This document shows positions 1,328-61,729 of a stretch of DNA of 64,000 bases, one piece after another. Both the position numbers and the translations under genes were made by a program. The notes under the pieces were generated by a model that was given only the letters and a program-made list of their open reading frames with translations, did no database searches and had not been told where the DNA came from. Origin of the DNA: Salinimicrobium profundisediminis (GTDB lineage: Bacteria; Bacteroidota; Bacteroidia; Flavobacteriales; Flavobacteriaceae); the NCBI RefSeq assembly GCF_026241755.1, contig NZ_JAPJDA010000007.1, positions 62,001 to 126,000 of the forward strand. The letters run 5' to 3'. Each line of letters starts with the position of its first letter. The first letter of the stretch is position 1.

Positions 1328-1473
1328 TAGTTTCGGCACGGATTACAAATCCGCGCCAACTGATTGTTGTTCCTTTTAAATTTATATGATCAGTCAGGTC
1401 GAGCGGAGTCGAGACCTCTATTTTTGGTTAAAGGTTCGGTACAGATTACAAATCCGCGCCAACATAGCTGCAA

Positions 1474-1495
1474 AAATTGCCATTTTTGAGAGGAT
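1474..1495. repeat. 22-bp direct repeat, copy 1 (left of TA cassette)
   Basis: Identical over 22 bases to 2670-2691; the shared word starts AAATTGCCATTTTTGAGAGG. The two copies bracket the toxin-antitoxin genes. The left copy overlaps an imperfect form of the AAAAATGNCATTTTT palindrome family (1471-1488). Confidence 0.85.
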
Positions 1496-1624
1496 CTTTA
1501 AAGTTTTAGCTATAACATAGAAGTTAGAGTTTTTAAACTGTAGCTTTCGCTATTCGAGTCGTTAGCAATAATCTATAAAAGAGTGGTTTAGTATAACTTT
1601 AGAATCGAAATGGATATAATATCG

Positions 1625-1632
1625 TATTTTTG
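1625..1632 (+). promoter_or_regulatory. -7 element of the TA operon promoter
   Basis: TATTTTTG matches the Bacteroidetes -7 consensus TAnnTTTG. It lies 26 bp before the start at 1659, predicting a leader of about 20 nt. No clear -33 TTTG is seen. Confidence 0.5.
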
Positions 1633-1658
1633 TATAAATTTAGATTACACCAGTAACA

Positions 1659-2111
1659 ATGTATTTATCAATTGATATAGAACAAATGGCTCGTCCTGTT
1701 GTTAAAAACGCAGGTAGAACCTCTCTTATATCAAGATTTTTGCACTTTTTTTTAAACAGAAGTTTAAAGAGCTTTTGTCAGGAATTAGATTCCTTTATTC
1801 TCTCTTTAGAAGGTTCTTTAAAACATATAGAGAACCTTGATGAAGATGGAGCTATGAAACTCTTACAATCTACAAAAAAGACGATTTCAAAAATGGATGA
1901 AATTGGTGAAGAGCTTCAGAAGGTTAGCTATTTCGAAAATCAGAATGTAAAGGAAAAATATATCTACATGCAAAATATCCTTTACAAAATTGAAGGTCGT
2001 TTACATCGGATTACTTTTCAAAACAAGAAAAAATTTTCTTCGGAAGATTCTTTAAAGAGGGGAGTGATTAAAATGAATTCGAAATACACCGAAACACTTC
2101 TCGTAAAATAA
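1659..2111 (+). CDS. Hypothetical protein, putative antitoxin of the adjacent MazF/PemK-like toxin
   Basis: 150 residues, not recognised as a named family. It is mostly helical in character and charged, with a hydrophobic patch SRFLHFFLN near residue 30 and heptad-like stretches (LDSFILSLEGSLKHIENL, TISKMDEIGEEL). No ribbon-helix-helix, AbrB or HTH motif of the usual MazE/PemI antitoxins is visible. Its stop codon is immediately followed, without spacing, by the start of a MazF/PemK-type toxin, the arrangement expected of an antitoxin-toxin pair. The antitoxin role is inferred only from position. Codon use is more AT-rich than the flanking housekeeping genes, which suggests acquisition. Confidence 0.5.
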   Translation: MYLSIDIEQMARPVVKNAGRTSLISRFLHFFLNRSLKSFCQELDSFILSLEGSLKHIENLDEDGAMKLLQSTKKTISKMDEIGEELQKVSYFENQNVKEKYIYMQNILYKIEGRLHRITFQNKKKFSSEDSLKRGVIKMNSKYTETLLVK

Positions 2112-2471
2112 ATGGCAGTTTTTAAACGAGGAGACATCATAGAAGTTTTTTTTGATCTTCCTTACAGTAAAGAAACAAAAACCCACCCCGCTATTATTAT
2201 TTCCAACGAAGATGTATACGACGCTGACGAAATTTATATATGCGTTATGATGACGTCATCATCCGAAGAGGATCTTTTTACTTTTGAAATTAAACAGGAG
2301 ATGTTGCAACGGCAAAACAACAAAATCTATAGTCAGGCAAGGTGTCATTTAATTACGTATGTTATGGAAAAGCATATCGTGGGTAATTATGCCAAGAACT
2401 CATTAAAGCCTGCTGCTGTGAACAGGCTTATTGCCCGAATTAATGAAGTCTCATTAGAAGATTTTTCATGA
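2112..2471 (+). CDS. PemK/MazF-like type II toxin (putative mRNA interferase)
   Basis: 119 residues. The N-terminus has the family pattern: KRGDIIEVFFDLP, then HPAIIISN, then VMMTSSS, matching the RGD-I, RPAIIIS and ITS blocks of MazF/PemK endoribonucleases. Relatives cleave mRNA and inhibit growth until neutralised. The gene abuts the upstream putative antitoxin with zero spacing (stop 2109-2111, ATG 2112), so translation is probably coupled. The pair lies between porD and recN and is flanked by a 22-bp direct repeat. Family call is good; activity is not shown. Confidence 0.75.
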   Translation: MAVFKRGDIIEVFFDLPYSKETKTHPAIIISNEDVYDADEIYICVMMTSSSEEDLFTFEIKQEMLQRQNNKIYSQARCHLITYVMEKHIVGNYAKNSLKPAAVNRLIARINEVSLEDFS

Positions 2472-2856
2472 GGCCAGGTGCAAGAATGGCTATCCAAAAA
2501 TGGCTTTTTTGAGAACTATTTTTTCGGGTATTCATTTCTATAAAGAAACAGGCAGTTATAATGATATTGTATTTTTTAAACGCCACTTTTACTTGATCGC
2601 AGATGAGAAAAATATTCATCTTTTTTTTAAGATATTTTTTTCACAAAGCTTCAGGAGTTTTTTCTCATTAAATTGCCATTTTTGAGAGGATTGGATTCTT
2701 TCAGAAGAAATTCCTTCTTTGTCGGGATGATTTTTTTCTTCGGAAATTAATCTGCCAAATTTGGTGCCTGCCATTTGATTCTTTTAAATTTGCTCCCTGT
2801 TAATTGCTTACTGCCCATAGAATTTTGCCTTATCTTTAACCAAAATTTTCATTCTC
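2472..2856. other. Non-coding stretch between toxin gene and recN
   Basis: 385 AT-rich bases with no convincing gene. It contains two imperfect members of the AAAAATGNCATTTTT palindrome family (2494-2511 and 2664-2686) and the right 22-bp direct repeat (2670-2691). A TATCTTTA sequence about 20 bp before recN resembles the -7 promoter element. Confidence 0.6.
2670..2691. repeat. 22-bp direct repeat, copy 2 (right of TA cassette)
   Basis: Exact copy of 1474-1495 in the same orientation, 1196 bp away. It sits inside the imperfect inverted repeat CTCA...TGAG at 2664-2686. Confidence 0.85.
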
Positions 2857-5403: not shown

Positions 5404-5446
5404 TAAGAGGTCTTAAAAATGTCATTTTGAGGCCTCTTATTTTTTG
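5404..5446 (+). terminator. fabI terminator enclosing a palindrome-family core
   Basis: Arms TAAGAGG (5404-5410) and CCTCTTA (5433-5439) are followed by a T-run. Between the arms lies TTAAAAATGTCATTTTGA, a weak copy of the dispersed palindrome. Confidence 0.8.
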
Positions 5447-5480: not shown

Positions 5481-6491
5481 ATGAAGCTGTCCTTCTCATT
5501 TATTGTTCCCGTTTACAATCGCCCGGCCGAGATCAGGGAGCTGCTGCAAAGCTTGTGTGAACTCGACTACGGCAAAGCCTTTGAAGTGGTGATCGTAGAA
5601 GACGGTTCTACAATCTCTTCGGAAGAAGTGGTGCAGCAATATGCCGGAATGCTGAAGATCAGCTACTTTAAAAAGCCGAATTCAGGTCCCGGTGATTCCC
5701 GTAACTACGGAATGGCCCGGGCTGCCGGGAACTACTTTTTGATCCTGGATTCTGATGTACTTTTGCCGCCGCATTATCTTACTGAAGTTGAAAAAGAGCT
5801 GCAGCAGGATTTTGCTCACTGTTTTGGTGGCCCCGATGCTGCTCATGAAGGTTTTAGTGACCTGCAGAAGGCGATAAATTATACCATGACCTCTTTTTTT
5901 ACTACCGGCGGAATTAGAGGAGGAAAGAAGATGCTGGGAAAATTTGAACCCCGCAGCTTTAATATGGGATTGTCAAAAGAGGCGTTTCTTGCTAGTGGTG
6001 GCTTCGGAAGAATTCACCCCGGCGAAGATCCCGACCTGGCACTTAGGCTCCAAAAAGGGCATTTTTCAAGCCGGTTATTTCCGGAAGCTTTCGTGTACCA
6101 CAAGCGGCGTATAGACTGGGAGAAGTTTTACCGGCAGGTGAATAAATTTGGGATGGTAAGGCCAATTTTGAATAAGTGGCACCCAGAGTCGGCTAAGATC
6201 ACGTACTGGTTTCCGACTTTATTTAGTTTTGGGCTTGTGGTAGCTGTGATTTTTGCCTTTTTTGGATGGTATTTGCCTATGTGGGTGTATGTGGTGTATC
6301 TGTTGGTTCTGTTTTTCCATTCTTTGGTGCGTAACGGCAGTATTAAAATTGCAGGTTTTTCTATTGTAGCTGCTCTCGTACAATTTCTGGGTTATGGGTT
6401 TGGTTTCTGCAAGTCAACCTGCTATCTTAGGATGTTCAACATGGATCCGGAAGAGAGGTTTCCAAAGCTATTTTTTAAACATGCTCAATAG
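5481..6491 (+). CDS. Family 2 glycosyltransferase, membrane-anchored
   Basis: 336 residues. The N-terminal GT-A domain shows SFIVPVYNRP, VEDGS (nucleotide-binding Asp) and the LDSDV metal-binding motif at about residue 92, with a GEDPDLALRLQ acceptor-side motif near residue 175. Two or three hydrophobic segments follow between residues 240 and 320, so it acts at the inner membrane. The sugar donor and acceptor cannot be read from sequence. It overlaps the YbbR-like gene by 11 bp and heads an operon with it and coaE. Confidence 0.88.
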   Translation: MKLSFSFIVPVYNRPAEIRELLQSLCELDYGKAFEVVIVEDGSTISSEEVVQQYAGMLKISYFKKPNSGPGDSRNYGMARAAGNYFLILDSDVLLPPHYLTEVEKELQQDFAHCFGGPDAAHEGFSDLQKAINYTMTSFFTTGGIRGGKKMLGKFEPRSFNMGLSKEAFLASGGFGRIHPGEDPDLALRLQKGHFSSRLFPEAFVYHKRRIDWEKFYRQVNKFGMVRPILNKWHPESAKITYWFPTLFSFGLVVAVIFAFFGWYLPMWVYVVYLLVLFFHSLVRNGSIKIAGFSIVAALVQFLGYGFGFCKSTCYLRMFNMDPEERFPKLFFKHAQ

Positions 6492-10523: not shown

Positions 10524-13500
10524 ATGAGGAGACTTCATGCCATCCAAAAATGTCATTCTACTGCCGTACTCCTGCGGCATTTTTTTGGTTGTGGCCAAAA
10601 TACAAGAGGGCTCAAAAATGCCATTTTTGAAAGGTTATTTCTTCTTTTTTTTCTTCTGAATTGTGGTGGTCTTTCTTTATTGGGACAGAATCCTGCTGAT
10701 ATAGTTCCGGTTTATGATCATATTGATCAGAAAGATTTGGGAACAGCAGGGCAAAATTCTACTGGTAATTTGGTAATTTCAATTGATACTGATTCTCAAG
10801 GATTCGTATACATTTTAACCTTTGGAAACGGAGTTTTTAAGTATAATCCGGAAGATAAAAGCTTGACTAATATAATTAGTGATGTTCCCGGGGAAAACGG
10901 AAGATTAAATGGTCCTTTAGATTTAGTGATAGACAATAATGACATCATTTATATTGCAGATAGTGGTTCAAAATTGATCAAAAAATTTAACACCTCGGGA
11001 AATTCTGTAGGTAATATCGGCTCAGGATCAGGAGGAGATGGGAAAAATGAATTTTGGGAACCAACTGGTTTAGCAATTGATGGCGATAACAACCTGTATA
11101 TAGTTGATTCGTATAGGGGGAGTGACTCGCAAGTTACTGAACGGTATTTTTTAAAAATTTATTATTCAAACGGGAATTTCACGAGTTTTCAAGGAACTCC
11201 AGGTCATCCGCTTGATAATCCATTTCGCGTAGCCGCTAATGAAAATTATATTCTTATCAGCCATGCAGAAAATGATGGTAAAGTTTTAGTTTTTAGCAAA
11301 AATCTTGACTATGTAAAGACATTAAGTCAAATTGGATCACCCGGAAGTATCGAGATTGATAATTTTGGATATATTCATATAATAGATTATTCAGATGAGT
11401 TAGATTTTAATCTCATTTTAAATTATGAAACTTTAGGTCTCCTTCAATATTTTTTATTGTACAATAATATTAGTTCAGGTATTGATCAACAGAAATTTGC
11501 TATTCAAATTTATGATTCAACTCTAAATCATACTGGAACACTTAATGATCCAGGAAATCCAGCTGAAGAAGATGATCATCTTCAGCTTCCTTTAGATCTT
11601 GCATTCAATAATTGCTCGAAATTATTTATAAATGATGGAAATTTAGATGGTCTCACAATTAATTTTGATCTTGAAATTTATGAGAGATCTCCTTCTACAG
11701 ACTTAACTCCTCCCGTAGCTAATTGCGTTTCTCCATTTACTGTGGTTTTACAAAATGGAACAGCCTCAATAACTGCAGAGCAGGTTGATAATAATTCTTC
11801 CGATAACTGCGCCATTGTTACTAAGAGCCTTTCACAATATAATTTTACTACTGTAGATGTTGGTACTGTACCTGTTACTCTGACTGTAACAGATTCTTCA
11901 GGCTTAACAGATACTTGTACTGTTAATGTAACAGTTGAAAATCCTGAAGGTCCAGATCCACCAGAGGCAATTTGTAATAGCTTTTCCGTTTCTTTGGATG
12001 GAGATGGAATGGCTCAGATTACGGCCGAACAGGTTTACAGCGGGAATGAAGCAGGGTTAACTTTAGAAATTAATACAACATCCTTTGACTGCTTTAATTT
12101 AGGGGATAATGTTGTTGTTTTAATCGTTACGGACCCAGCTACTGGATTAAGTGATTCCTGTCCTGCTACAATAACAGTAAAAGACGAAATCCTTCCCACA
12201 ATGACCTGTCCTACAGTTCAACCTGTAACAGTGCCGTTCGGAGAGACAGGAAAGGTAATTAATTACACTGCACCAATCCCGGAGGATAATTGTTCCGTAG
12301 CAGATTTTGACCAAATAGCGGGACTTCCACCAGGAAGTAAATTTCGTCTCGGCGATACCGAGAATACTTTTAGGGTTATTGACACTTCTGGCAATGAATT
12401 TACTTGCAGCTTCACTGTGACTATTAACCAAGCAGAGGATGAGACACCACCCGTTATAGATTGTCCTGTCCAGCCAATCGTAAAATCATCTACTCTAGGT
12501 GATTGCTTTGCAGTTGTGGAATATGAAATACCAACAGCCACCGACAATTCTGGTCCTCAAGCCGTCTCAAGGATTAGTGGTCCGGAGTCTGGGGATCAAT
12601 TAGCTCCTGGGGATTATGAAGTTTTGTTCGAAGCAAAAGATGATGCGGGAAATTTTACAAGGTGTACTTTGGATATAACGGTAATAGATGAAGAAGCCCC
12701 TGTCTTCACCACCTGCCCATCAGGTAGTGAGAGAACTATTACCGCTGTAAACGGACAATTTTTGGTGCCCGATCTTACAGGAGAATTTCAGGCCGAGGAT
12801 AATTGTACCAATGATGCAGCCATTACCTACACTCAGGTGCCCGATGTTGGGGAGGAAATATTTTCAAATACTACATTAAAGATTTATGCTTCCGATGAAT
12901 ATAATAATCAATCTGTTGCGTGTGAGATCCAACTGATTGTAGATGTGAATGAGGATGAACTGGAAATTTTCTGTCCGCCAAACAGCACTCCGTCCTTTGG
13001 AGACAATTGTGCCTTTGAGCTTCCAGATTACACCAGTTCAGCGACTGTGAATTCATCCACAGCTCAAATAACTCAGGATCCTCCTGCAGGCACCCTGATT
13101 TATGGCAGAACAGAAATCACTTTGACTGCGACTGAAGGCGGCGAGACTGCCGAATGTTCCTTTATGGTTGATCCGGTTGATGAAGAAGCCCCGGTCTTCA
13201 CCATCTGCCCATCAGGTAGTGAGAGAACTATTACCGCTGTAAACGGGCAATTTTTGGTGCCCGATCTTGCAGGAGAATTTCAGGCCGAGGATAATTGTAC
13301 CAATGATGCAGCCATTACCTACACTCAGGTGCCCGATGTTGGGGAGGAAATATTTTCAAATACTACATTAAAGATTTATGCTTCCGATGAATATAATAAT
13401 CAATCTGTTGCGTGTGAGATCCAACTGATTGTAGATGTGAATGAGGATGAACTGGAAATTTTCTGTCCGCCAAACAGCACTCCGTCCTTTGGAGACAATT

Positions 13501-22473: not shown

Positions 22474-22490
22474 TAAAAATGCCATTTTTA
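22474..22490. repeat. Palindrome-family element, perfect 17 bp
   Basis: TAAAAATGCCATTTTTA. On the minus strand it begins at the stop codon of the 3-hydroxyacyl-CoA dehydrogenase gene and lies just before DUF1015. Confidence 0.9.
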
Positions 22491-23378
22491 AGAGGTAAAC
22501 TGGCCAGAGACTTTTTCGGCTTTCCTGCTTTCAGAATAGTCATAAAAACCTTCTCCCGATTTCACGCCAAGTTTTCCTGCCTGCACCATATTTACCAGGA
22601 GAGGGCAGGGAGCGTATTTTGGATTCTTAAAGCCGCTGTACATCACCTCGAGAATAGAGAGACAAACATCAAGCCCAATAAAATCGGCAAGTTGTAGCGG
22701 ACCCATAGGATGCGCCATGCCCAGTTTCATCACCGTATCAATTTCCTGAACCCCGGCCACCCTGTTGTAAAGGGTTTCAATAGATTCGTTGATCATTGGC
22801 ATAAGAATGCGGTTGGCCACAAACCCCGGATAATCATTTACTTCAACAGGATCTTTTTTCAGCTTTTTTGAAAGCTCCATGATGTTTGAAGTCACCTCAT
22901 CACTGGTGTTGTAGCCTCGAATGATCTCCACCAGCTTCATCACCGGTACCGGGTTCATAAAATGCATTCCAATTACCCTTTCCGGGTTTGAGACTACCGA
23001 GGCAATTTTTGTAATTGAAATTGAAGAAGTGTTTGACGCAAGTACAGTTTCTGAAGCGCAGATTTCATCCAGCTGTTTGAAAATTTTCAGTTTAAGATCA
23101 ACATTTTCTGTTGCGGCCTCCACTACCAGATCCACATTTTTTACACCTTCTGAAATCTGGGTAAAAGTGGTGATGTTGTTGAGGGTATTTGTTTTATCTT
23201 CTTCAGATATCTTTTCTTTGGAAACCATGCGGTCAAGATTGCCTGAGATGGTTTTCATCCCTTTCTCCAGGCTTTCTTCTGAAATATCTATAAGATTTGT
23301 TTTATAACCAAATTGGGCAAAAGTATGGGCAATTCCGTTCCCCATTGTTCCTGCACCAATAACTGCAATATTTTTCAT
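22488..23378 (-). CDS. 3-hydroxybutyryl-CoA dehydrogenase (3-hydroxyacyl-CoA dehydrogenase family)
   Basis: 296 residues, the usual length. NAD-dependent oxidation of 3-hydroxyacyl-CoA. The Rossmann motif GAGTMGNGIA is at residues 8-17, the catalytic His lies in GMHFMNPVPVM, and the C-terminal domain begins YPGFVANRILMPMINE. It lies 8 bp after the Gfo/Idh/MocA gene. Whether it serves butyrate, PHB or phenylacetate metabolism cannot be told from context. Confidence 0.92.
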   Translation of the reverse strand: MKNIAVIGAGTMGNGIAHTFAQFGYKTNLIDISEESLEKGMKTISGNLDRMVSKEKISEEDKTNTLNNITTFTQISEGVKNVDLVVEAATENVDLKLKIFKQLDEICASETVLASNTSSISITKIASVVSNPERVIGMHFMNPVPVMKLVEIIRGYNTSDEVTSNIMELSKKLKKDPVEVNDYPGFVANRILMPMINESIETLYNRVAGVQEIDTVMKLGMAHPMGPLQLADFIGLDVCLSILEVMYSGFKNPKYAPCPLLVNMVQAGKLGVKSGEGFYDYSESRKAEKVSGQFTS

Positions 23379-27267: not shown

Positions 27268-27282
27268 AAAAATGCCATTTTT
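27268..27282. repeat. Palindrome-family element
   Basis: AAAAATGCCATTTTT in the 36-bp gap between two minus-strand genes, 6 bp after the stop of the phosphatase gene. Confidence 0.9.
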
Positions 27283-35538: not shown

Positions 35539-35587
35539 AACGCTGCCTTAGGTCTCAAAAATGGGATTTTTAGGCAGCGTTTTTTAT
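35539..35587 (+). terminator. glyA terminator with palindrome-family-like centre
   Basis: Outer arms AACGCTGCCT (35539-35548) and AGGCAGCGTT (35572-35581) followed by TTTTTAT. The loop contains TCTCAAAAATGGGATTTTTA, a degenerate form of the dispersed core. Confidence 0.9.
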
Positions 35588-37247: not shown

Positions 37248-37251
37248 CCCC

Positions 37252-37345
37252 GGCAAGTCCCACACAACCAGCTCCTGCTGAATCCCCCAGGGCGGGAACG
37301 CAGCAAGGGTAAGCGGTCGTAGCGGTGTGATGTGGGTAGCTTGCC
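37252..37345 (+). ncRNA. ffs: Signal recognition particle RNA, small bacterial (4.5S-like) type
   Basis: About 94 nt that fold into one long hairpin. Terminal stem GGCAAG/CTTGCC, then CCCACAC pairing with GTGTGATGTGGG. The apical domain contains CCCAGGGCGGGAACGCAGCA, the conserved Ffh-binding loop of SRP RNA. A promoter ends 5 bp upstream and a T-run (TTTTTT) follows at 37347. It directs Ffh and nascent membrane proteins to FtsY. Confidence 0.9.
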
Positions 37346-37388
37346 ATTTTTTGTTTCCAATAGTCTCGATTTATTGCATCTTTGCAGC

Positions 37389-38201: not shown

Positions 38202-38214
38202 TTTTGCAGAAGGT

Positions 38215-38233
38215 TGAAAAATGGCATTTTTCA
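38215..38233. repeat. Palindrome-family element, perfect 19 bp
   Basis: TGAAAAATGGCATTTTTCA. The outer bases are TG/CA rather than the TC/GA seen at 10612, so flanks differ but stay complementary. Confidence 0.9.
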
Positions 38234-38263
38234 GCAGTATTTAATCATTTATAACAACACACT

Positions 38264-38917
38264 ATGAAATTTTTTATCGACACAGCAAACCTTGACCAGA
38301 TAAGGGAAGCCCAGGACCTTGGGGTCCTTGACGGAGTGACTACTAACCCTTCTCTTATGGCTAAAGAAGGTATCACCGGGAAAGACAACATCATTGCCCA
38401 TTACAAGAAAATTTGTGAGATCACTACCGGAGATGTTAGTGCCGAAGTGATTGCGACCGATTTTGAGAATATTGTAAAAGAAGGAGAGGAACTTGCCGCT
38501 TTGCACGATCAAATTATTGTGAAAGTGCCTATGATCAAAGACGGTATTAAAGCCATCAAATACTTTAGCGATAAAGGAATAAAAACAAACTGTACTTTGG
38601 TATTTTCGGCAGGTCAGGCGCTTTTGGCAGCCAAAGCCGGGGCAACTTATGTTTCGCCTTTTATCGGGAGACTTGATGATATCTCAACAGATGGTTTGAA
38701 CCTTATCATGGAGATCCGCCAAATATATGATAACTACGGGTTTGAAACCGAAATTCTTGCAGCTTCGGTGAGGCACACCATGCACGTAATTGATTGCGCT
38801 AAAATAGGTGCCGATGTAATGACCGGGCCACTTTCGGCGATCACAGGTTTATTAAACCACCCACTTACTGATATTGGTCTTGAGAAATTCCTTGCCGATC
38901 ATAAAAAAGGGAACTAA
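38264..38917 (+). CDS. Fructose-6-phosphate aldolase / small transaldolase
   Basis: 217 residues, the length of the small TalC/FSA subfamily. A TIM-barrel enzyme with Schiff-base Lys87 in QIIVKVPM. The opening [13 protein letters not shown] and the [13 protein letters not shown] block are diagnostic. Transaldolase versus fructose-6-phosphate aldolase activity cannot be settled from sequence alone. A palindrome core and a hairpin terminator follow the stop. Confidence 0.92.
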
Positions 38918-38923: not shown

Positions 38924-38938
38924 AAAAATGACATTTTT
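38924..38938. repeat. Palindrome-family element
   Basis: AAAAATGACATTTTT, 7 bp after the transaldolase stop and directly before its terminator hairpin. Confidence 0.9.
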
Positions 38939-39129: not shown

Positions 39130-39146
39130 CAAAAATGGCATTTTTG
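39130..39146. repeat. Palindrome-family element, perfect 17 bp
   Basis: CAAAAATGGCATTTTTG, 27 bp downstream of the stop of the minus-strand lipoprotein gene. The left flank GGTTC also precedes the copy at 38924. Confidence 0.9.
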
Positions 39147-43791: not shown

Positions 43792-43827
43792 AAAACATGC
43801 AAAAAATCGCATTTTTGGCTATGTTTT
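43792..43827. repeat. Palindrome-family element with outer stem
   Basis: Outer arms AAAACAT (43792-43798) and ATGTTTT (43821-43827) enclose an imperfect core, CAAAAAATCGCATTTTTGG. It lies between two divergent genes. Confidence 0.6.
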
Positions 43828-43949: not shown

Positions 43950-44537
43950 ATGAAAATTTTTAGACACTTTTTAAGCCTGAGTATCCTGGCAGGAATCCTC
44001 CTGGTTGGTTGCGGGCCCAAAGTAGATACCAACAAAAGAACGGCAAAGAGCTTAAACAGTTATGAGAGCTATGCCTTCTTACCCAACCAGGATACTATAC
44101 AAACTTCTGTTTATGACAATGCGCAGGTGAATGAAATAGTTATAGATGAAATTCGGCAGAATATGCAGGACCTAAATTACAGGCTAGATCGCAATCAACC
44201 CGATCTCCTGGTGTATTATCACCTAATGTTAGACGAAGAAATGGCGGTGAATGCAAATCCTGTTTACACCAACTACAGTTATTACCGTCCCGGATTTTAC
44301 GTAGGGCCATACTATAGAAATTATGCTTATAATAACTATTTCACCGTTCCCAGAATTGCAGGAAATAGTGTACAGCAAGTACCATATAAAGAAGGTACCA
44401 TAGTGATTGACCTTATTGACCGTCGTACCAATGAGATTGTATGGAGAGGAAAAGCCGAAGATGTTGTTTCTCCCGCCAATCTTAGTGAAGAATTAAGGAC
44501 TTACGTAAATGCCATTTTTGACAGGTTACCAAAGTAA
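43950..44537 (+). CDS. DUF4136 domain lipoprotein
   Basis: 195 residues. The lipoprotein signal ends LLVGC with Cys21. SYESYAFLPNQD, then DLLVYYHL, a Tyr/Asn-rich loop, and GTIVIDLIDRRTNEIVWRGKAED fit DUF4136, a beta-sandwich family of unknown role in cell envelopes of Bacteroidetes and Proteobacteria. A shared bidirectional terminator follows. Confidence 0.85.
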   Translation: MKIFRHFLSLSILAGILLVGCGPKVDTNKRTAKSLNSYESYAFLPNQDTIQTSVYDNAQVNEIVIDEIRQNMQDLNYRLDRNQPDLLVYYHLMLDEEMAVNANPVYTNYSYYRPGFYVGPYYRNYAYNNYFTVPRIAGNSVQQVPYKEGTIVIDLIDRRTNEIVWRGKAEDVVSPANLSEELRTYVNAIFDRLPK

Positions 44538-44645: not shown

Positions 44646-47072
44646 TTATCTAAGCTCTGCACCCAATTGCTTTTCAAGGTTTTGTTGCAGCTTGCCCATT
44701 ATTTTATCAATTTGTTTATCGGTAAGGGTTTTTCTTTCATCCTGCAGGATAAAACTCACTGCATAACTCTTCTTTCCTTCCGGAAGGTTAGCCCCTTCGT
44801 ACACGTCAAAAAGATTTACTTCCTTAAGAAGGTCTTTTTCAGTTTTAAAGGCTATGTCGTAGATCTGTTCAAATTTCACAGCGTCATCAAGCAAGAGGGC
44901 AAAATCTCTTCTCACCGCCTGAAACTTGGAAATATCCCTGAATTTGTTCTGTTGGTCTTTAGAAGTTTCTACCACCATATCCCAGTTGAAATCGGCATAA
45001 AGCACTTCCTGGTTTATGTCGAAATTTTTGAGGATCTTTCTTTTGATCACTCCAAATTCTACCAGTCTCACATTATTAAAGCTGAAAGAAATTCCTTCAG
45101 AAAAAACGTCATTTTTGACAGGTGAGGTTTTAAGGTCTCTTATACCCAGTCTTTCCAAAACTGAAGTCACTATTCCTTTAAGGTAGAAAAATTCCCCTTT
45201 TTGAACAGCATTGGTCCAGGTTTCTCTGTTCCTGTTACCCGAAATGAAGATAGAAAGGTGTTTCTTTTCTTCCCGGCCGCTGTTGTAGTTGTGATAGGTC
45301 TTTCCGAATTCAAAGAACTTAAGATCGGCTCTTTTGCGGTTCAGGTTGTAGCTCACTGCCTCAAGGCCCGAGAACAATAACGACTGCCGCAGCACAGAAA
45401 GATCCTGGCTAAGCGGGTTAAGCATTTTTACCACATGTTCTTCCTTCAACTGCTCACTAAGGCCCAGGTGGGAAGGAGTAGTAAGTGAATTGGCCATGGT
45501 TTCAAAGAATCCCTGCCCTACAAGCTGTCCGGCAATTAAATTCTGAAGTTTATAATCTTCAAACCTCGTGGAATTGGCGACAGAGGCATTGATCTTATCT
45601 CCAAATTCAATATTGTTGTAACCATAAACCCTTAGGATCTCTTCAATAACATCGGCCTCTCGTTTTACGTCTACACGGTATGGCGGTATGGTAAGGCCCA
45701 TTCCGGTTTCGGTAACGTTGTTCACTCGTATTTCGAGCGAAGCAAGAATAGATTTGATGGTTTCTTTAGACAGGTTTTGCCCAACAAGAGAATTGATCTT
45801 TTCAAAAGTGAGGAAAACAGGGAAGTCTTCAACCTTTTTTGGGTAGTAGTCGTCAATATCACTTGAAACACTTCCTCCGGCCAGCTCCTGAATGAGCAAT
45901 ACTGCACGTTTAAGAGCATATTCGGTTATGTTGGGATCAATACCTCTTTCATATCTAAAGGAAGCATCGGTATTTAAACCATGGCGTTTGGCTGTTTTTC
46001 GAACAGTTACAGGATTGAAATAGGCACTCTCAATAAAGAGATTGTTGGTTCCCGATGTTACCCCACTGCTAATTCCGCCAAACACACCGGCTATAGCCAG
46101 TGGCTTTTCGGCATCACATATCATAAGGTCTTCTTCATGCAGCTCTCTTTCAACTTCATCTAGCGTAGTGAATTTTGTTCCTGCCTCTAATGTCTGCACA
46201 ATGATCTCATTTCCTGAGATCCTGTCGGCATCAAAAGCGTGCAGGGGCTGGCCTAGCTCATGCATCACGTAATTGGTCACATCTACAACATTGTTCTTTG
46301 GAGCGATTCCAATTGCTTTAAGCCTGTTTTGCAACCATTTTGGGGATTCTGATATTTCTACCCCTGTAATGGTCACTCCGCAATAACGGGGTGCCAGTTC
46401 GGGCTTGACAATTTTCACCGGAATCCTTCGGCTGCGGCTGTCAATATGAAAACTACTTACCGAAGGGGTAATTAGCTCCTGGGGTTCTCCCTGTTGTTGT
46501 AGCCCCGCTTTAAGATCGCGCGCTACTCCCCAGTGGCTCATAGCGTCGGCACGGTTTGGAGTTAAACCTATTTCGAACACATGGTCGTCTTCAACTTCAA
46601 AAAGACTGGCTGCCGGGGTGCCCACTTCAATACTGGAATCGAGTACCATTATGCCGTCATGGCTTTGTCCCAGACCCAGTTCATCTTCGGCACAAATCAT
46701 CCCGTGACTGCTTTCGCCTCTTATTTTACTTTTCTTGATTTCCCAGGGAGAACCTTTTTCATCGTAAAGGGTAGTGCCTACTGTTGCCACCGGTACTTTT
46801 TGTCCTGCTGCTACATTAGGTGCCCCACAAACAATTTGAACCGGTTCGCCATTACCCAAATCTACAGTGGTAACTTTAAGCCTGTCGGCGTTGGGATGGG
46901 GTTCGCAGGTAAGTACTTCTCCTACCACTATGCCCCTAAGGCTCCCTTTTACACTTTGAAATTCATGAATACCTTCTACTTCAAGGCCCAGATCTGTGAG
47001 CAGTTCTCCTGTTTCTTCAGGATTACGATTAACTTTTATGAATTGTCTAAGCCAGTTATATGAAATCTTCAT
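44646..47072 (-). CDS. pheT: Phenylalanine-tRNA ligase beta subunit
   Basis: 808 residues, full length. Forms the alpha2-beta2 enzyme with PheS, whose gene is not in this window. The N-terminal tRNA-binding EMAP-like domain spans about residues 40-150 (GEVLTCEPHPNADRLKVTTVDLG). B3/B4 and B5 domains lie in the middle, and the ferredoxin-fold anticodon-binding domain is at the C-terminus (FRDISKFQAVRRDFALLLDD). A TATCTTTG -7 box on the minus strand is at 47093-47100, about 21 bp before the ATG. Assignment is secure. Confidence 0.97.
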   Translation of the reverse strand: MKISYNWLRQFIKVNRNPEETGELLTDLGLEVEGIHEFQSVKGSLRGIVVGEVLTCEPHPNADRLKVTTVDLGNGEPVQIVCGAPNVAAGQKVPVATVGTTLYDEKGSPWEIKKSKIRGESSHGMICAEDELGLGQSHDGIMVLDSSIEVGTPAASLFEVEDDHVFEIGLTPNRADAMSHWGVARDLKAGLQQQGEPQELITPSVSSFHIDSRSRRIPVKIVKPELAPRYCGVTITGVEISESPKWLQNRLKAIGIAPKNNVVDVTNYVMHELGQPLHAFDADRISGNEIIVQTLEAGTKFTTLDEVERELHEEDLMICDAEKPLAIAGVFGGISSGVTSGTNNLFIESAYFNPVTVRKTAKRHGLNTDASFRYERGIDPNITEYALKRAVLLIQELAGGSVSSDIDDYYPKKVEDFPVFLTFEKINSLVGQNLSKETIKSILASLEIRVNNVTETGMGLTIPPYRVDVKREADVIEEILRVYGYNNIEFGDKINASVANSTRFEDYKLQNLIAGQLVGQGFFETMANSLTTPSHLGLSEQLKEEHVVKMLNPLSQDLSVLRQSLLFSGLEAVSYNLNRKRADLKFFEFGKTYHNYNSGREEKKHLSIFISGNRNRETWTNAVQKGEFFYLKGIVTSVLERLGIRDLKTSPVKNDVFSEGISFSFNNVRLVEFGVIKRKILKNFDINQEVLYADFNWDMVVETSKDQQNKFRDISKFQAVRRDFALLLDDAVKFEQIYDIAFKTEKDLLKEVNLFDVYEGANLPEGKKSYAVSFILQDERKTLTDKQIDKIMGKLQQNLEKQLGAELR

Positions 47073-49421: not shown

Positions 49422-51446
49422 ATGAAAAGCTCCTTTTTACTTGTTCTGGCGATATTAATTAGCACTGCGACCTGCGCACAGCATTCGGCGGCAGTAGATT
49501 TCAAAAAACTCAATGCCGAAATAAGTATTTACCCCTCAAAAAAGGCAGTTTCGGGAAAAATTATGTTCAAATTTGACATTTTAGAGGCTGTAGATTCGAT
49601 CTTTATTGATGCCCGAAAAATGGCATTTTCGGATGTGCTTCTGAATGGTAAAAAAGTTAACTTCGGAAGTGATCAAAATAAATTCTGGATCACCGGAAAT
49701 TTTTCTCCCGCACAAGATCAGCAACTTCAGCTGAAGTATTCGGCTACACCCGGTCAAACCCTTTATTTTATTTCGAAGAAACCCGAAGCAGCAGGGCAGC
49801 AGGATTACCAGGTATGGACGCAGGGCCAGGGAAAATACACTTCTAACTGGCTACCAAGCTTTGATGATACTTCAGAAAAACTGGAATTTGACCTCACGTA
49901 CATCTATCCTTCCGGGAAAATGCTGATCTCTAATGGAAGTTTAGTGGCTTCAGAAAAGATCAATGACACGCTTACGCGCTGGGAATTTGATATGATGAAC
50001 CCAATGAGCAGCTATCTTGTTGCGATGGCAGCTGGAGATTTTAAAGAGGTGAGGCATATTGAAAATGATATTCCCATGATCTTTTATTATCCCGAAGGCA
50101 TGGAAGAGAGGGTGGAGCCCACCTACAGGCATACCGGTTTTATGATGGATTTTTTTCAGAAGGAAACCGGCGTGGCATATCCATGGCAGAATTACAAACA
50201 GATTCCTGTCCGTGATTTTTTATACTCCGGAATGGAGAACACCGGTACAACCATTTTTTCAGACATTTTTCTTGTAGATTCTATAGGCTATCACGACCAG
50301 AATTATGTGAATGTGAATGCTCATGAGCTGGCCCATCAATGGTTTGGAAATCTTGTAACGGCTGCTTTTCATGAAGATCACTGGCTGCAGGAAGGTTTTG
50401 CGACCTATTATGCTTTACTTGCCGAAAAGGAAATTTTTGGGGAAGACTACTATTACCGGAAACTCTTTAAAACCGCTGAAGAGCTAAAGGAATTAAGTGA
50501 CAGGGGCAAGGGGGAAGCCGTAGCTGCCAAAAATGGCAGTTCTCTTACATATTACCAGAAAGGGGCGTGGGCTTTGCACATTTTGAACGAGAAAATAGGA
50601 AAGACTGCTTTTGACACGGGGGTAAAGAATTTTCTTGAAAAGCATAAATATTCAACCGCCACCACTCAAGATCTCATAGATGAAATGGAAGCTGCCAGTG
50701 GGCAGGACCTTTCGGGTTTTGTAAATGACTGGCTGAAGCAATCGGCTTTCCAGGGAACACAGGCGCTGGAATCTTTGAGAAAATCTCCTTTTATTCAGAA
50801 GTACCTTGCATTGGCTGCGGTCAAACCACTACCTGTTTCAGAAAAAAGGAATTTGTTACTGCAGGTACTCAGTTTTCCGGTAAACGATTATCTGGGGCAG
50901 GAAGCGGTACTGCAGCTGGCTCTGGAAGATACTACGCTGGTAAGTGACCTTTATAAAAAGGCATTTTCAAGCGGAAATCTTTATACCAGGCAGGCCATAG
51001 CTTTTACATTACAAAACGTGCCACAGCAACTAAAACCGGAATATGAATCTCTGCTGAATGATGCGTCTTACCTCACCCAGGAAATGACGCTCTACAACCT
51101 GTGGATGTCTTTTCCCGAAGACAGAGCGGCTTACCTGCGAAAAATGGCAAATACAGAAGGCTTTCTTGACAAGAACATCAGGACCCTTTGGCTAACGCTG
51201 GCCCTCGCTACTCCGGGATTTGAAATGGCTTCTAAAAACAAATATATTGAAGAACTGAGAAGTTATACGGCTCCTCATTCCCGTTTCCAGGTGCGGGAAA
51301 GAGCGTTTGGTTTCCTGTACCAGTTAAATGCTTTTGATGAGCAGAGTTTAGCCAACCTCAAAGATGCCACCACTCACCCAAACTACAGGTTCAGGGAATT
51401 TGCCAAAGAGCTGCTCAAAACTTTACAGGAAGCAGAAGGTCTGTAG
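49422..51446 (+). CDS. Secreted M1 family aminopeptidase
   Basis: 674 residues with a signal peptide ending TATCAQ. The exopeptidase motif GMENTG (270-275) and zinc motif HELAH (301-305) with Glu324 (WLQEGFATYY) define the M1 family. The C-terminal 230 residues form helical repeats. It acts in periplasm or outside, trimming N-terminal residues from peptides. Its stop codon lies in a 14-bp tandem repeat. Confidence 0.93.
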   Translation: MKSSFLLVLAILISTATCAQHSAAVDFKKLNAEISIYPSKKAVSGKIMFKFDILEAVDSIFIDARKMAFSDVLLNGKKVNFGSDQNKFWITGNFSPAQDQQLQLKYSATPGQTLYFISKKPEAAGQQDYQVWTQGQGKYTSNWLPSFDDTSEKLEFDLTYIYPSGKMLISNGSLVASEKINDTLTRWEFDMMNPMSSYLVAMAAGDFKEVRHIENDIPMIFYYPEGMEERVEPTYRHTGFMMDFFQKETGVAYPWQNYKQIPVRDFLYSGMENTGTTIFSDIFLVDSIGYHDQNYVNVNAHELAHQWFGNLVTAAFHEDHWLQEGFATYYALLAEKEIFGEDYYYRKLFKTAEELKELSDRGKGEAVAAKNGSSLTYYQKGAWALHILNEKIGKTAFDTGVKNFLEKHKYSTATTQDLIDEMEAASGQDLSGFVNDWLKQSAFQGTQALESLRKSPFIQKYLALAAVKPLPVSEKRNLLLQVLSFPVNDYLGQEAVLQLALEDTTLVSDLYKKAFSSGNLYTRQAIAFTLQNVPQQLKPEYESLLNDASYLTQEMTLYNLWMSFPEDRAAYLRKMANTEGFLDKNIRTLWLTLALATPGFEMASKNKYIEELRSYTAPHSRFQVRERAFGFLYQLNAFDEQSLANLKDATTHPNYRFREFAKELLKTLQEAEGL

Positions 51447-51530
51447 TTTATAGTCTGTAGTTTATAGTCTGTAGTTGGTATTCTGTAGACCTTAAACCTT
51501 AAACCTTAAACCTTGAACTTTGAACCTTGA
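51440..51530. repeat. Two adjacent short tandem repeats at a convergent junction
   Basis: A 14-bp unit TCTGTAGTTTATAG in about 2.9 copies (51440-51480) is followed by six 7-bp units ACCTTAA/ACCTTGA/ACTTTGA (51489-51530). They lie between the M1 peptidase and a convergent gene, where a terminator would be expected. Confidence 0.85.
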
Positions 51531-51531
51531 A

Positions 51532-52119
51532 CTAATTTTTTGGCGGAGTGATCATGATATGAGCGCGATGGGTACCGGGATCCATGATCCAGGGCATACC
51601 CGGGGCGAATGGTTTTTCGGGTAGTCCTGTAGATTCGGCTGTGGCATAGGGAATATAGATCACATACCTGAAGTGCCCGTCGGTGAGCTCTCCGGTTGCC
51701 GCATTGTAGTTTTCTTCACTACCGGTAAGGATCGTGGTCATTGCCGGGGAATCGGTTAAAGACAGGGAACCGGCTTCAGCTTCTCTTTTTCTTGTTTCCC
51801 GCTTTTCCATTTCCCCTGTTCCCTGGGCAGCAAGTTCCCTGCCGCGGGCCATAAATGGTTCCAGTTTGTTGGAATAACAAGACACATTAATTCCATTTTG
51901 AGCTGGGTCATCGGCCAGGCATACCAGGTGATTTGTGCCCTCACGTAAAACGATCATTTCTCCCTGTTCATTAAAGCCATAGACCATTGCACCGTCACGA
52001 AGTTCTTCGGGTGCTGCAAGCGTTGCAGTCTTTATCTGGATCTCTGCCGGCAGCACTTTTGTCTGCGCATTTAAAATGGATGTGAAAAGCAGGGATAGAA
52101 TGAACAGGAAAGATTTCAT
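51532..52119 (-). CDS. Secreted hypothetical protein
   Basis: 195 residues with a signal peptide ending TSILNAQ. Notable segments are RDGAMVYGFNEQGEMIVLREGTNHLVCLADDP, a Met/Arg/Glu-rich middle, and FRYVIYIPYATAESTGLP near the end. I do not recognise the family. The C-terminal RAHIMITPP may be a beta strand of the core fold. No T9SS sorting domain. Confidence 0.65.
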   Translation of the reverse strand: MKSFLFILSLLFTSILNAQTKVLPAEIQIKTATLAAPEELRDGAMVYGFNEQGEMIVLREGTNHLVCLADDPAQNGINVSCYSNKLEPFMARGRELAAQGTGEMEKRETRKREAEAGSLSLTDSPAMTTILTGSEENYNAATGELTDGHFRYVIYIPYATAESTGLPEKPFAPGMPWIMDPGTHRAHIMITPPKN

Positions 52120-53659: not shown

Positions 53660-53704
53660 AACACAAGAGGCGTCAAAAATGCCATTTTTGACGCCTCTTG
53701 TGTT
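53660..53704. repeat. 45-bp perfect palindrome with palindrome-family core
   Basis: 22-bp arms 53660-53681 and 53683-53704 are exact complements around one central C (53682). The centre is the family core AAAAATGCCATTTTT; the outer arm AACACAAGAGGCG is unique here. It lies 51 bp downstream of the gpx stop, without a T-run. Confidence 0.95.
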
Positions 53705-54230: not shown

Positions 54231-54682
54231 AAAAATACCTTTTTGTAAAGGTAAGAGATTTAGCCTTAGCTAAAAAAGACTGTGAAACCCTTTCGTATAA
54301 AGATCAACATGTTGTGAATGCGTAAAGCAACAAATCAGGGCATTCTTTAGTAGATTTTGGCAGGAACCTATTGAGTAGAGTAGAAATGATTATAAAAAAC
54401 GAAACCCGATAGTTTGAATTTCTTCAGGGACAATCGGGAATAAGATAATACAAATATAATCTATATTGTTTTTAACAATTAGGTTATAGTCTCTCCAACA
54501 ACGCTTCCTATTGATTTAATAGGCAATCAGGTATGCCCGTTCAACTATTTTATGAGATATTATTTCTCCCCGGAATAAGATGACCAGAATCATATTTTCT
54601 TTTCAAAAATGACATTTTCTTTGCCACATAATTCTGCCGGGTGGAACAATCTGCTGCGGCTACTATTTATTGGAGAAAGCTC
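54231..54682. other. Non-coding stretch between gpx and the U32 gene
   Basis: 452 AT-rich bases between divergent genes. It has a long-loop hairpin CCCGAT/ATCGGG (54405-54438) and a weak palindrome-family copy CAAAAATGACATTTTCTTTG (54604-54623). No convincing promoter or small gene is seen. Confidence 0.55.
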
Positions 54683-59668: not shown

Positions 59669-59818
59669 TTCTTTTTTATTGATTCTGAGATGAATATGAC
59701 GTGCTTTAGAATTCATTTTGCCGCATCACACGAAATAATTACGACTAAAACGATTGAAGCAACAATTTTTTAATACTAATTTAACCTTTTGATATGCTGA
59801 TACTTAGGGTTTAAGATT

Positions 59819-59826
59819 TACTTTCG
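59819..59826 (+). promoter_or_regulatory. Probable -7 element of glgA
   Basis: TACTTTCG, one mismatch to TAnnTTTG, 38 bp before the ATG. Confidence 0.35.
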
Positions 59827-59864
59827 TTCAGATCAAATTACGTAAGTATTTAAGAGCGCTATAT

Positions 59865-61424
59865 ATGAATAATTTTCTTTTTGTTGCTTCAGAGAATGAT
59901 GCCATTGCCAACTGTAAAGTAGGAGGGGTAGGAGATGTTATTCGCGACGTTCCAAAACAGATTTCAGAGCGTGGAGATCGGGTGCACGTTGTGGTTCCAT
60001 CTTATTCCAGGCTCCACGAAAGTGGAACTTTTAAGGCCTCACTTCAGCTAAATTTACGCGGAATATCTTATACCGCACAACTCTATGAGGTGCCGGCCAA
60101 AGAAGAAGATAAGAACATTAGCCACTATGTAATTCACCACCCCGAAATAGAAATGGGAAACCTTGGGGGCATTTACCATCATGATCCCTTTGAGCCCTTT
60201 TACAGTGACGTTATTAAATATACCATCTTTTGTACAGCGGTTGCCGAAGCAATTAAACAAAAGCACTTCGGAAAGCTTGATATTGTGCACTTGCACGACT
60301 GGCATTCCAGTTTATTGTTGTTCCTAAAAAATTATCATCCGCAGTATTCCTGTCTTAAGAAGAACAGGTTTGTTTACTGTATACACAACCTGGCATTACA
60401 GGGAATTCGGCCGTTTGAAAATAATTATTCTTCCCTGCAAAACTGGTTTCCGCAACTCGAAATAGATCGTGAAGCTTTGAAAGATCCAAGGTATGCCGAT
60501 TGTTTTAACCTTATGGCTATTGGAATAAGATATGCCGATGCTGTACATACCGTTTCACCTTCCTACAAGCAGGATGTGCTTTTGCCCAGCGCTGCTCCCG
60601 AATTTATTGGTGGTGAAGGCTTAGAAAATGATTTAAGACAGGCCGACCGCGAAGGTCGTTTTCACGGTATTCTCAATGGATCAGATTATCGTCCTGAAAC
60701 CCTGGTGAAAAAAAACCGGTTGTTCCCCAATATTGCTACTGCCATCTTTAAACAACTTCAGAAGGAACAGGACAGGGAAAAAGCAGCTTTTTTGGCACAT
60801 ACAGGAGAGAAGATCGTTCCTTTTCTGAAGAAAAAACCAAACTTTATAAGTGCCAGTGTGGCGAGGCTTACTGAACAAAAGTTCTATTTCTTTAAGCGCT
60901 CTCCCGAAGCTCTTTTGGAAATTCTTGACAGGCTGGAAGAAGTCAATGGTATTTATGTACTTCTTGGTACCGGAGCGGCCGATTATGAGCAGCTGTTGCG
61001 GGATATAAGTTATAAAAGAAAGAATTTCATTTTTATCAATGCCCAGTGCGAGCAGGTGGTGAATTCTATCTATAGAGATTCTGACCTTTATTTTATGCCA
61101 AGCCTTTTTGAACCTTGCGGGATTAGCCAAATGCTTGCCATGAGAAATGGGCAGCCCTGCCTGGTGCACCATACCGGCGGACTTAAAGATACGGTACAGC
61201 ACGTGCACACAGGTTTCGCCTTTGATGGCAAAACCTACGATGAAAAAGTCTATAACATGGTAGAAAGTTTTAAAGAAGCTCTTTACTTCTTTGAAAATGA
61301 TAAGACTGTGTGGAAACAGATAGGCCTCAACGCCCGTAGAATGCGATTTACCTGGAAGAAATCTGTAGATGAATACTATAAACTTCTTTACACATTCAAT
61401 CCTGCCGACGTAAGGGTAGCCTGA
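59865..61424 (+). CDS. glgA: Glycogen/starch synthase, GT5 family
   Basis: 519 residues. Transfers glucose from ADP- or UDP-glucose to the growing glucan. The N-terminal KVGGVGDVIRDVPK is the GT5 donor-binding motif, and the C-terminal SLFEPCGISQMLAMRNG holds the catalytic Glu. No glgB or glgC is next to it. Assignment is secure as a glycogen synthase family enzyme. Confidence 0.93.
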   Translation: MNNFLFVASENDAIANCKVGGVGDVIRDVPKQISERGDRVHVVVPSYSRLHESGTFKASLQLNLRGISYTAQLYEVPAKEEDKNISHYVIHHPEIEMGNLGGIYHHDPFEPFYSDVIKYTIFCTAVAEAIKQKHFGKLDIVHLHDWHSSLLLFLKNYHPQYSCLKKNRFVYCIHNLALQGIRPFENNYSSLQNWFPQLEIDREALKDPRYADCFNLMAIGIRYADAVHTVSPSYKQDVLLPSAAPEFIGGEGLENDLRQADREGRFHGILNGSDYRPETLVKKNRLFPNIATAIFKQLQKEQDREKAAFLAHTGEKIVPFLKKKPNFISASVARLTEQKFYFFKRSPEALLEILDRLEEVNGIYVLLGTGAADYEQLLRDISYKRKNFIFINAQCEQVVNSIYRDSDLYFMPSLFEPCGISQMLAMRNGQPCLVHHTGGLKDTVQHVHTGFAFDGKTYDEKVYNMVESFKEALYFFENDKTVWKQIGLNARRMRFTWKKSVDEYYKLLYTFNPADVRVA

Positions 61425-61568
61425 TGAAAATTTTGGGCTAAAAACCTTTTCAGTTTAGGGTTTTATAATTTTTCCTGATAATTTCAGAAAAGCAGTTTTC
61501 TTTTCCTGAGTTTATCAGGAATTTTTTATTGCTGTGGAGCAAATTTCAGGTTTTAAAAAAGGATTGTG

Positions 61569-61581
61569 AAAATGCCATTTT
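61569..61581. repeat. Palindrome-family element, short form
   Basis: AAAATGCCATTTT, followed by GGAACCTT. The reverse complement of this flank matches the AAGGTTCC before the copy at 38924. Confidence 0.6.
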
Positions 61582-61729
61582 TGGAACCTTAGCATAATTC
61601 AGCTTAAATTTTAGGAACTGGTTTTCAGTAGATTTCACTAAAACATGAACTCATATTTTATATTTAGTATTTTTTCTTCCTCCGAAAACCTTATAGGTAT
61701 TTTAATGCCTCAATCTTTTTCTATTAATT

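What the first reader, a model, noticed from the sequence alone, without database searches (positions are those of the whole stretch)
1471..61583. Dispersed intergenic palindrome family with core AAAAATG-N-CATTTTT and complementary variable flanks
Seen directly: the exact 15-mer core occurs at 10614, 22475, 27268, 38217, 38924, 39131 and 53675, and weaker or interrupted forms at 1471, 2494, 2664, 5413, 35556, 43800, 54604 and 61569. By base composition far fewer than one exact copy is expected in 64 kb. None of the seven lies in a secure coding region, although most of the window is coding; the copy at 10612 is in a doubtful N-terminal extension. Most lie 7-30 bp after a stop codon, sometimes in or beside a hairpin terminator (5404, 35539, 38924). 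Flanking pairs differ between copies (TC/GA, TG/CA, CC/GG-like) yet stay complementary, as expected for a selected RNA hairpin or a dyad protein site. I cannot name a described family that matches. Roles to weigh: transcript-end stabiliser, bidirectional terminator, dyad binding site, or a spreading non-autonomous element.
Basis: partly seen in the sequence, partly recalled or inferred. Interest (0 to 1): 0.7.

Follow-up and report, generated by a model that had tools for sequence, protein, structure and literature searches.

The report
Genome-wide palindromic DNA signal, function unproven
One bacterial genus near Gillisia and Salegentibacter carries a 15-letter palindrome at hundreds of exact places in its genome, inside genes as well as between them, and keeps it at the level of the DNA itself, somewhat like the self-recognition tags of some transformable bacteria; what reads it is unknown.

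Summary
The exact core occurs 7 times in the window and 296 times in the 4.04 Mb genome, against 1 for the reversed control. It is confined to one genus: 391 other genomes of the phylum hold at most 3 copies each. A profile finds 302 sites in 823 kb of this genome (control 12 per 305), roughly 1,500 genome-wide. Of these, 197 of 302 lie inside called genes, so "intergenic" is wrong. The one-base centre is strict. Long complementary arms are rare: 9 of 302. Sites turn over mainly by point mutation. Inside genes, 233 of 251 third codon positions are kept in a sister species against 184.2 expected for the same codons; eight decoy palindromes give z of 0 to 2. I read it as a dyad double-stranded DNA signal recognised by a symmetric protein. 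An uptake-sequence-type self-DNA tag fits best, a nucleoid-organising site is close behind; neither is demonstrated. A minority sit at terminator apices, and attC-like repeats of integron-like arrays in congeners carry it too.

The parts
10614..10628 (.). exact core, tandem gap; also in sister species G009, no such core in the four other congeners aligned
22475..22489 (.). exact core overlapping the stop end of gene 22488-23378(-); intact or degraded at the same place in five congeners
27268..27282 (.). exact core, 6 bases beyond the stop of gene 27289-27810(-)
38217..38231 (.). exact core between two genes, ending 32 bases before the start of a transaldolase-like gene (38264-38917) and just after TAGTTTTG; A5/T5 stem kept in 9 of 10 congeners read, loop variable
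   Evidence: gene and promoter-element names from recall
38924..38938 (.). exact core 6 bases after the stop of the same gene, in front of a hairpin with CTTCGG
39131..39145 (.). exact core in a convergent gap
53675..53689 (.). exact core at the apex of an inverted repeat with 15 further complementary pairs
1473..1487 (.). one-mismatch copy
2496..2510 (.). one-mismatch copy
2669..2683 (.). two-mismatch copy
5415..5429 (.). one-mismatch copy inside a terminator hairpin; kept in the congeners visible in the cut output
6052..6066 (.). one-mismatch copy inside gene 5481-6491(+)
35557..35571 (.). one-mismatch copy in the loop of a terminator hairpin kept in five congeners
43802..43816 (.). one-mismatch copy in a divergent gap; poorly kept in congeners
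44505..44519 (.). two-mismatch copy inside gene 43950-44537(+)
45102..45116 (.). one-mismatch copy inside gene 44646-47072(-)
49538..51154 (.). seven weaker profile sites inside one M1-peptidase gene (49422-51446): 49538, 49569, 49616, 50424, 50529, 50954, 51140
54605..54619 (.). one-mismatch copy in a divergent gap
61568..61582 (.). one-mismatch copy in a tandem gap

Best explanation
It is a dyad-symmetric signal in double-stranded DNA, half-site N-CATTTTT-GA, read base by base by a symmetric (probably homodimeric) protein wherever it lies. Shown: over-representation, strict geometry, genus limits, spread over the chromosome, turnover mainly by point mutation, and DNA-level conservation inside genes. 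Inferred: the reader protein and the role. The role I commit to is a self-DNA signal of the uptake-sequence type. A DNA-import or recombination machinery of this genus would prefer DNA carrying the palindrome, so copies that arise by mutation are favoured in transmission and build up to about 1,500 places, limited by harm to genes and promoters. Secondary uses follow: some copies became apices of terminators, and gene cassettes in the genus carry one in their attC-like repeats. I put about 0.8 on 'protein-read dyad DNA signal' and about 0.4 on the uptake-type role.
For: 296 exact copies against 1 control; at most 3 in 391 other genomes of the phylum. Centre fixed at one base. Own-to-sister third codon positions 233/251 kept, 184.2 expected, z 7.2; with the looser rule used for the decoys (up to 3 mismatches) 392/461, 332.8 expected, z 6.35; eight decoys -0.0 to 2.0. 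Noncoding core identity 0.947 against 0.836 in far flanks, centre base 0.71, 31 sites. 38 of 41 own sites are recognisable in G009 and 32 of 35 the other way. On single-contig G009, 40 samples show no origin-terminus trend by eye. Traits stated for uptake sequences in PMC7811141 (passages read), namely evolution by point mutation, under-representation in coding, constrained and newly acquired DNA, and overlapping pairs serving as terminators at gene ends, have counterparts here: 197/292 in genes against 0.90 of positions; density 5.38, 1.91, 1.33 per 10 kb from least to most conserved genes; lower density in low-GC genes and windows; terminator apices. Self-DNA preference without an identified signal is reported for naturally competent Riemerella columbina (PMC7965970, passages read). 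A ComEC-type competence gene is present and holds four sites. 13 of 14 attC-like cassette repeats carry the core.
Against: No uptake or binding assay exists here. Known uptake sequences, as I recall them, are not palindromic. The genus is not shown to be competent; ComEC is widespread (recalled). PMC7811141 calls USS relatively evenly spaced, but here spacing is more uneven than random (CV 1.23 against 1.03 +- 0.06 with arrays removed). Multi-site genes show no clear bias to genome maintenance: 3 of 27 scanned. The low-GC cassette arrays are rich in sites, unlike other low-GC DNA. Two complete congeners, G002 and G003, hold it only thinly (34 and 19 inner cores against 2 and 4 in control). At the 38217 leader the loop letters vary between species while the A5/T5 stem stays.
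Confidence: 0.4

Rival explanations
1. Binding site of an abundant nucleoid-organising or global regulatory protein. A homodimer binds the 7-1-7 dyad at about one place per 2.7 kb to shape or insulate the chromosome.
For: Palindromic strict dyad with A and T tracts centred 10 bases apart; spread over the sampled chromosome; kept site by site; depleted from divergent promoter gaps.
Against: Some 1,500 individually kept sites, most inside ordinary genes, are hard to explain by individual benefit. No regular spacing. Two congeners hold few sites. Cassette repeats carry it one by one.
Confidence: 0.3
2. By-product of a DNA-modification or repair bias, as proposed for HIP1 in cyanobacteria: methylation-linked mismatch repair creates and keeps the sequence without a function of its own.
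For: HIP1 is a highly repeated palindrome for which a repair-bias model is proposed (PMC4390886, abstract and passages).
Against: A 14-letter gapped core is much longer than the methyltransferase sites named there (GATC, CGATCG). Methyltransferases were not searched for here.
Confidence: 0.1
3. RNA (or single-strand) hairpin: terminator, 3'-end stabiliser or loop-recognised structure as the main function.
For: 9 of 105 noncoding sites have 6 or more perfect arm pairs, shuffles 1.24 +- 1.05. In the 38217 leader one foot pair reads T-A in this genome and four congeners and C-G in three, with a variable loop. In the own sample 17 of 32 double changes of a core pair are complementary, above the roughly one third expected. 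Convergent gaps are enriched.
Against: 197 of 302 sites lie inside genes, and there the arms are unpaired. Core changes are mostly one-sided, 191 against 17 in the own sample and 175 against 12 in G009, where only 12 of 42 double changes are complementary. The bare core offers almost only A-U pairs.
Confidence: 0.1
4. Mobile palindromic element (REP or Rickettsia-type) that inserts into genes and gaps.
For: Large copy-number differences between congeners. Site 10614 and one coding gap look like presence/absence. Copies occur in a tandem array. Y1 transposases exist in the genus.
Against: One clean gap among 76 own/G009 comparisons, some loci counted both ways. The in-gene sites examined differ from orthologues by point changes. 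G004 has 108 exact copies but no Y1 transposase match.
Confidence: 0.05
5. Chance product of codon or start-codon preferences.
For: In genes the frame K-N-x-I-F dominates (113 of 197), and AAAAATG suits start sites of this phylum (recalled).
Against: Reversed control 1 against 296. Only 7 of 302 sites hold the called start codon. Codon-matched test z 7.2. About a third are noncoding.
Confidence: 0.01

Closest known systems
DNA uptake sequences (DUS of Neisseriaceae, USS of Pasteurellaceae)
   Same: Very many copies, clade-restricted, also in genes, evolving by point mutation, rarer in constrained and recent DNA, some at gene ends as terminators (PMC7811141 and PMC3630211, passages)
   Different: Palindromic (contrast recalled), 15 bp with free centre, in Bacteroidota, spacing uneven, no uptake data
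HIP1, highly iterated palindrome of cyanobacteria
   Same: Highly repeated palindrome of debated function, variable between relatives (PMC4390886, abstract and passages)
   Different: Different, longer, gapped and AT-rich sequence; lower density (about 1 per 2.7 kb against about 1 per kb stated there); methylation link not tested
REP/BIME repeats
   Same: Palindromes, often at gene ends, rare in divergent gaps (REP side recalled)
   Different: Mostly inside genes, hardly any insertion, not tied to a Y1 transposase in G004
Binding sites of chromosome-organising proteins (MatP, Noc, SlmA type; recalled)
   Same: Palindromic protein-type site spread over coding and noncoding DNA
   Different: Many more sites (recalled comparison), no regional bias seen, protein unknown

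Membership tests
DNA uptake sequence | over-represented by orders of magnitude in one clade | tested here: met
DNA uptake sequence | arises and is lost by point mutation in aligned homologous DNA | tested here: met
   six in-gene sites; 76 comparisons, one clean gap
DNA uptake sequence | under-represented in coding, constrained and newly acquired DNA | tested here: met
   'newly acquired' only with GC as a proxy, and the low-GC cassette arrays are an exception
DNA uptake sequence | relatively even spacing | tested here: not met
   CV 1.23 against 1.03 +- 0.06
DNA uptake sequence | promotes uptake or transformation through a specific receptor | not testable with these tools
   needs experiment
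HIP1 | sequence GCGATCGC in cyanobacteria | tested here: not met
   core read; other sequence and lineage
HIP1 | solitary methyltransferase for an inner sequence | not tested
   no search made
REP/BIME | extragenic | tested here: not met
   197 of 302 sites in genes
REP/BIME | dispersed by insertion | tested here: not met
   one clean gap among 76 comparisons; 10614 undecided
REP/BIME | companion RAYT (Y1 transposase) | tested here: inconclusive
   above cut-off in 8 of 12 genomes, no match in G004 with 108 exact copies
Intrinsic terminator | G+C-rich stem and U tract at transcript ends | tested here: not met
   9 of 302 sites have long arms, all noncoding
Integron attC site | complementary outer boxes around the core | tested here: not met
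   0 attC-like repeats in 823 kb of the own genome by one simple pattern; met only by cassette copies in congeners

The most novel reading that the evidence does not exclude
A palindromic self-DNA (uptake-type) signal in Bacteroidota, built up by biased transmission in one Flavobacteriaceae genus and hitch-hiked by the genus's integron-like gene cassettes, which carry a copy in their attC-like repeats, so that cassettes are tagged for import.
Probability: 0.3. Interest if true: 0.88.

Novelty: new variant of a known kind. Interest (0 to 1): 0.72.

Why it matters
Dispersed signals of this size and abundance are known in few lineages (recalled), and most have helped explain how chromosomes or gene exchange work. 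This one can be tested cheaply: bind it, tag DNA with it, measure uptake. Self-DNA preference has been reported in competent Riemerella without an identified signal, so a candidate signal in the family makes an open question testable. It also gives a clean case of selection or drive acting on third codon positions, and links such a signal to integron-like cassettes.

Tried and rejected
Rejected or weakened: mobile insertion; general hairpin or terminator role; start-codon context (7 of 302; the count of 0 printed used a wrong offset and is void); promoter element (TAnnTTTG not enriched near sites); xenogeneic silencer (density rises with GC, r 0.56 over 37 windows). The excess of short gaps became insignificant once tandem arrays were removed (52 gaps under 500 against 46.0 +- 5.5, p 0.14). 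Helical phasing of short gaps: nothing convincing. Other dialects: in samples of 40-60 kb, G002, G003 and six other genera showed no gapped 6+6 palindrome of comparable enrichment (a few AT-rich ones with 3-4 copies in G024, one with 3 in G002), while the same scan found the family in samples of G000, G004, G005, G006 and G009. Function of multi-site genes: no theme; 27 of 28 such genes were scanned, one spanned two loci and was left out. Naming the genus: the fetched named loci are of other genera, closest 72-75% DNA identity (Gillisia, Salegentibacter, Christiangramia); the tool may omit near records. Papers: none holds the literal core; listings showed no description and searches returned nothing. 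The third-position test without codon matching was replaced because one decoy also scored high.
Full report
WHAT IS THERE. The exact core AAAAATGNCATTTTT occurs 7 times in the window where shuffled sequence gives none. With up to two mismatches there are 32 matches against 2.23 expected. In the whole genome it occurs 296 times; the same pattern read backwards occurs once. The 13-base inner core occurs 460 times against 3.

WHERE ELSE. Of 60 genomes searched, one is the own; of the 59 relatives, 10 of 11 genus-mates hold the core (4 to 246 copies; the eleventh, G001, is 74% complete and has none), while 25 genomes of other genera of the family and 23 of the order hold 0 to 2 each (kinship as the tool assigns it). 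In a draw of 392 genomes of the phylum, the own genome included and no other member of the genus, none of the other 391 has more than 3. Samples of 40-60 kb from six other genera and from the congeners G002 and G003 show no comparable gapped palindrome of another sequence.

ANATOMY. I read 823 kb of the own genome (and the window) and trained a symmetric profile. In the last round 302 separate sites were found, with 305 raw hits against 12 in one third-order Markov control; this scales to about 1,500 per genome (inference). The half-site is free centre, then C, A, T, T, T, T, T, then G, A, any but T, A, two strong bases (CC or GG), T. Only one spacing is used: AAAATG-1-CATTTT 103 times, any other spacing from 0 to 12 at most twice. 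Among 6+6 palindromes with gaps of 1-7 this family is by far the most enriched in the sample; TTCTTC-1-GAAGAA follows with 16 copies against 0.9 expected.

PLACEMENT. Of 302 sites, 197 are in called genes, 59 in tandem gaps, 28 in convergent gaps, 8 in divergent gaps and 10 at edges. Genes make up 88.6% of the sequence, so gaps are about threefold enriched for profile sites and about fivefold for exact copies (35 of 63 outside genes). Among gaps, convergent ones have more (28 of 95, p about 4e-4) and divergent ones fewer (8 of 95, p about 5e-4) than their length predicts. In genes one frame dominates (113 of 197, peptide K-N-x-I-F). On the single-contig genome G009, 40 evenly placed 20-kb samples hold 293 sites with no origin-terminus trend by eye; a few windows are nearly empty. 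Site density falls from 5.38 to 1.33 per 10 kb from the least to the most conserved third of 185 genes (31, 12 and 8 sites), and it is lower in low-GC genes.

IS IT A HAIRPIN? Mostly not. Six or more perfect arm pairs occur in 9 of 105 noncoding sites and 0 of 197 coding sites. When a core position deviates, it does so mostly on one side: over pairs +-3 to +-7, 191 one-sided, 17 compensatory and 15 other double changes in the own sample, and 175, 12 and 30 in G009. The share of compensatory changes among double changes is above the chance third in the own sample and not in G009, so a weak pairing effect is not excluded. Copies with long arms look like terminators with the dyad at the apex; 35557 keeps that form in five congeners, and 5415 in those visible. 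At 38217, in the leader of a transaldolase-like gene (name recalled), the A5/T5 stem is kept in 9 of 10 congeners while the loop varies, and one foot pair is T-A in this genome and four congeners and C-G in three: one place where hairpin conservation is credible.

IS IT MOBILE? The evidence is against it. Six in-gene sites were aligned to congeners: in the alignments that cover them the core region differs by point changes, though some distant or flank-only alignments, mainly at C5 49220 and C3 34977, contain gaps. Of 41 own sites with up to one mismatch aligned to G009, 38 are recognisable there (up to two mismatches); of 35 G009 sites, 32 are recognisable in the own genome; one of these 76 comparisons is a clean gap, and some loci count in both directions. 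Window site 10614 is shared only with G009 among five congeners, in a region too diverged to tell insertion from replacement. A 124-bp tandem array behind an engB-like gene (name recalled) carries profile sites in most units, 13 over the array and its flank, 5 by a stricter pattern, so copies can also be amplified locally.

IS IT KEPT FOR ITS OWN SAKE? Yes, at the DNA level. Own and G009 are 85.5% identical over 201 kb aligned. In 31 noncoding sites the core is 94.7% identical, the centre 71% and the far flanks 83.6%. In genes, taking each codon's own conservation as expectation, 233 of 251 third positions inside cores are kept against 184.2 expected (z 7.2); flanks give z 2.2. Under the looser rule applied to the decoys the core gives 392 of 461 against 332.8 (z 6.35), and eight decoy palindromes of similar composition give z -0.0 to 2.0, with 90-249 codons each. 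Codon preference does not explain this. Selection and biased transmission cannot be told apart with this data.

THE CASSETTE LINK. Congener G002 holds 11 of its 34 inner cores on one 15-kb contig, an array of small genes with repeats of 112-115 bp, CGGTTAAC...TTGCGTTAACCG, and the palindrome inside. In G010 a tyrosine recombinase gene is followed by two gene-plus-repeat units. In the loci examined a simple pattern found 14 attC-like repeats, of which 13 carry the core by a loose test. The integron-integrase model matches something in all 12 genus genomes, but never above its cut-off, and it does the same in all 14 control genomes. I call this integron-like, not an integron. The chromosomal copies themselves are not attC-like (0 in 823 kb).

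HOW IT LIKELY WORKS. Shown: abundance, geometry, genus limits, mainly point-mutational turnover, DNA-level conservation. Inferred: a symmetric protein reads the double-stranded site. For the role, two readings remain close. Uptake sequences are described as evolving by point mutation, being rarer in coding, constrained and new DNA, and forming terminators where pairs overlap (PMC7811141, passages); each has a counterpart here, except that spacing is less even and that low-GC cassette arrays are site-rich. Self-DNA preference without an identified signal has been seen in Riemerella (PMC7965970, passages). The nucleoid-protein reading explains the palindrome directly but not why some 1,500 sites, mostly inside unrelated genes, are each worth keeping. 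I give 0.4 and 0.3.

NOVELTY. No paper in the library holds the literal core. Searches on palindromic motifs, uptake sequences, extragenic palindromes and nucleoid proteins in this group returned nothing or listings without a description of it (listings only). Subscription papers are mostly missing from that library, so this is not proof. As a kind it belongs with highly iterated genomic signals; as a palindrome of this length in Bacteroidota I know of no counterpart (recall).

Noticed in passing
L397 (G010:C21:1-10000), L376 and L377 (G002:C15, C8), L395 (G006:C8:490001-510000): Integron-like arrays: genes followed by 109-115 bp attC-like repeats holding the palindrome; in G010 directly behind a tyrosine recombinase gene. 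In the own genome similar repeat ends (0-1 mismatch, five places) lie on contigs C39 and C40, the latter with a 298-aa recombinase frame.
   Followed up: partly
L390 (G011), L396 (G004), L393 (G007), L394 (G005), L376:2650-3000: Runs of two to three roughly 92-bp repeats, each with a copy of the palindrome; in the four congeners they lie within about 1 kb of a roughly 400-aa recombinase gene.
   Followed up: partly
L009:3761-5153 (own C3:83761-85153): 124-bp tandem array of about 11 units behind an engB-like gene (name recalled), most units with a profile site.
   Followed up: partly
window 38201-38264: Leader of the transaldolase-like gene: promoter-like TAGTTTTG followed by an A5/T5 hairpin kept in 9 of 10 congeners with changing loop and foot (names recalled).
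   Followed up: partly
window 37244-37350: Small SRP RNA, Rfam RF04183.
   Followed up: no
window 49422-51446: M1-peptidase gene with seven profile sites, the most of any gene in the sample outside tandem repeats.
   Followed up: no
own genome sample: Second enriched dyad TTCTTC-N-GAAGAA, 16 copies against 0.9 expected; possibly terminator stems with CTTCGGAAG.
   Followed up: no
window 51439-51532 and 63448-63493: Heptamer tandem repeats (GTCTGTA, ACCTTAA) and a 23-unit TC repeat.
   Followed up: no
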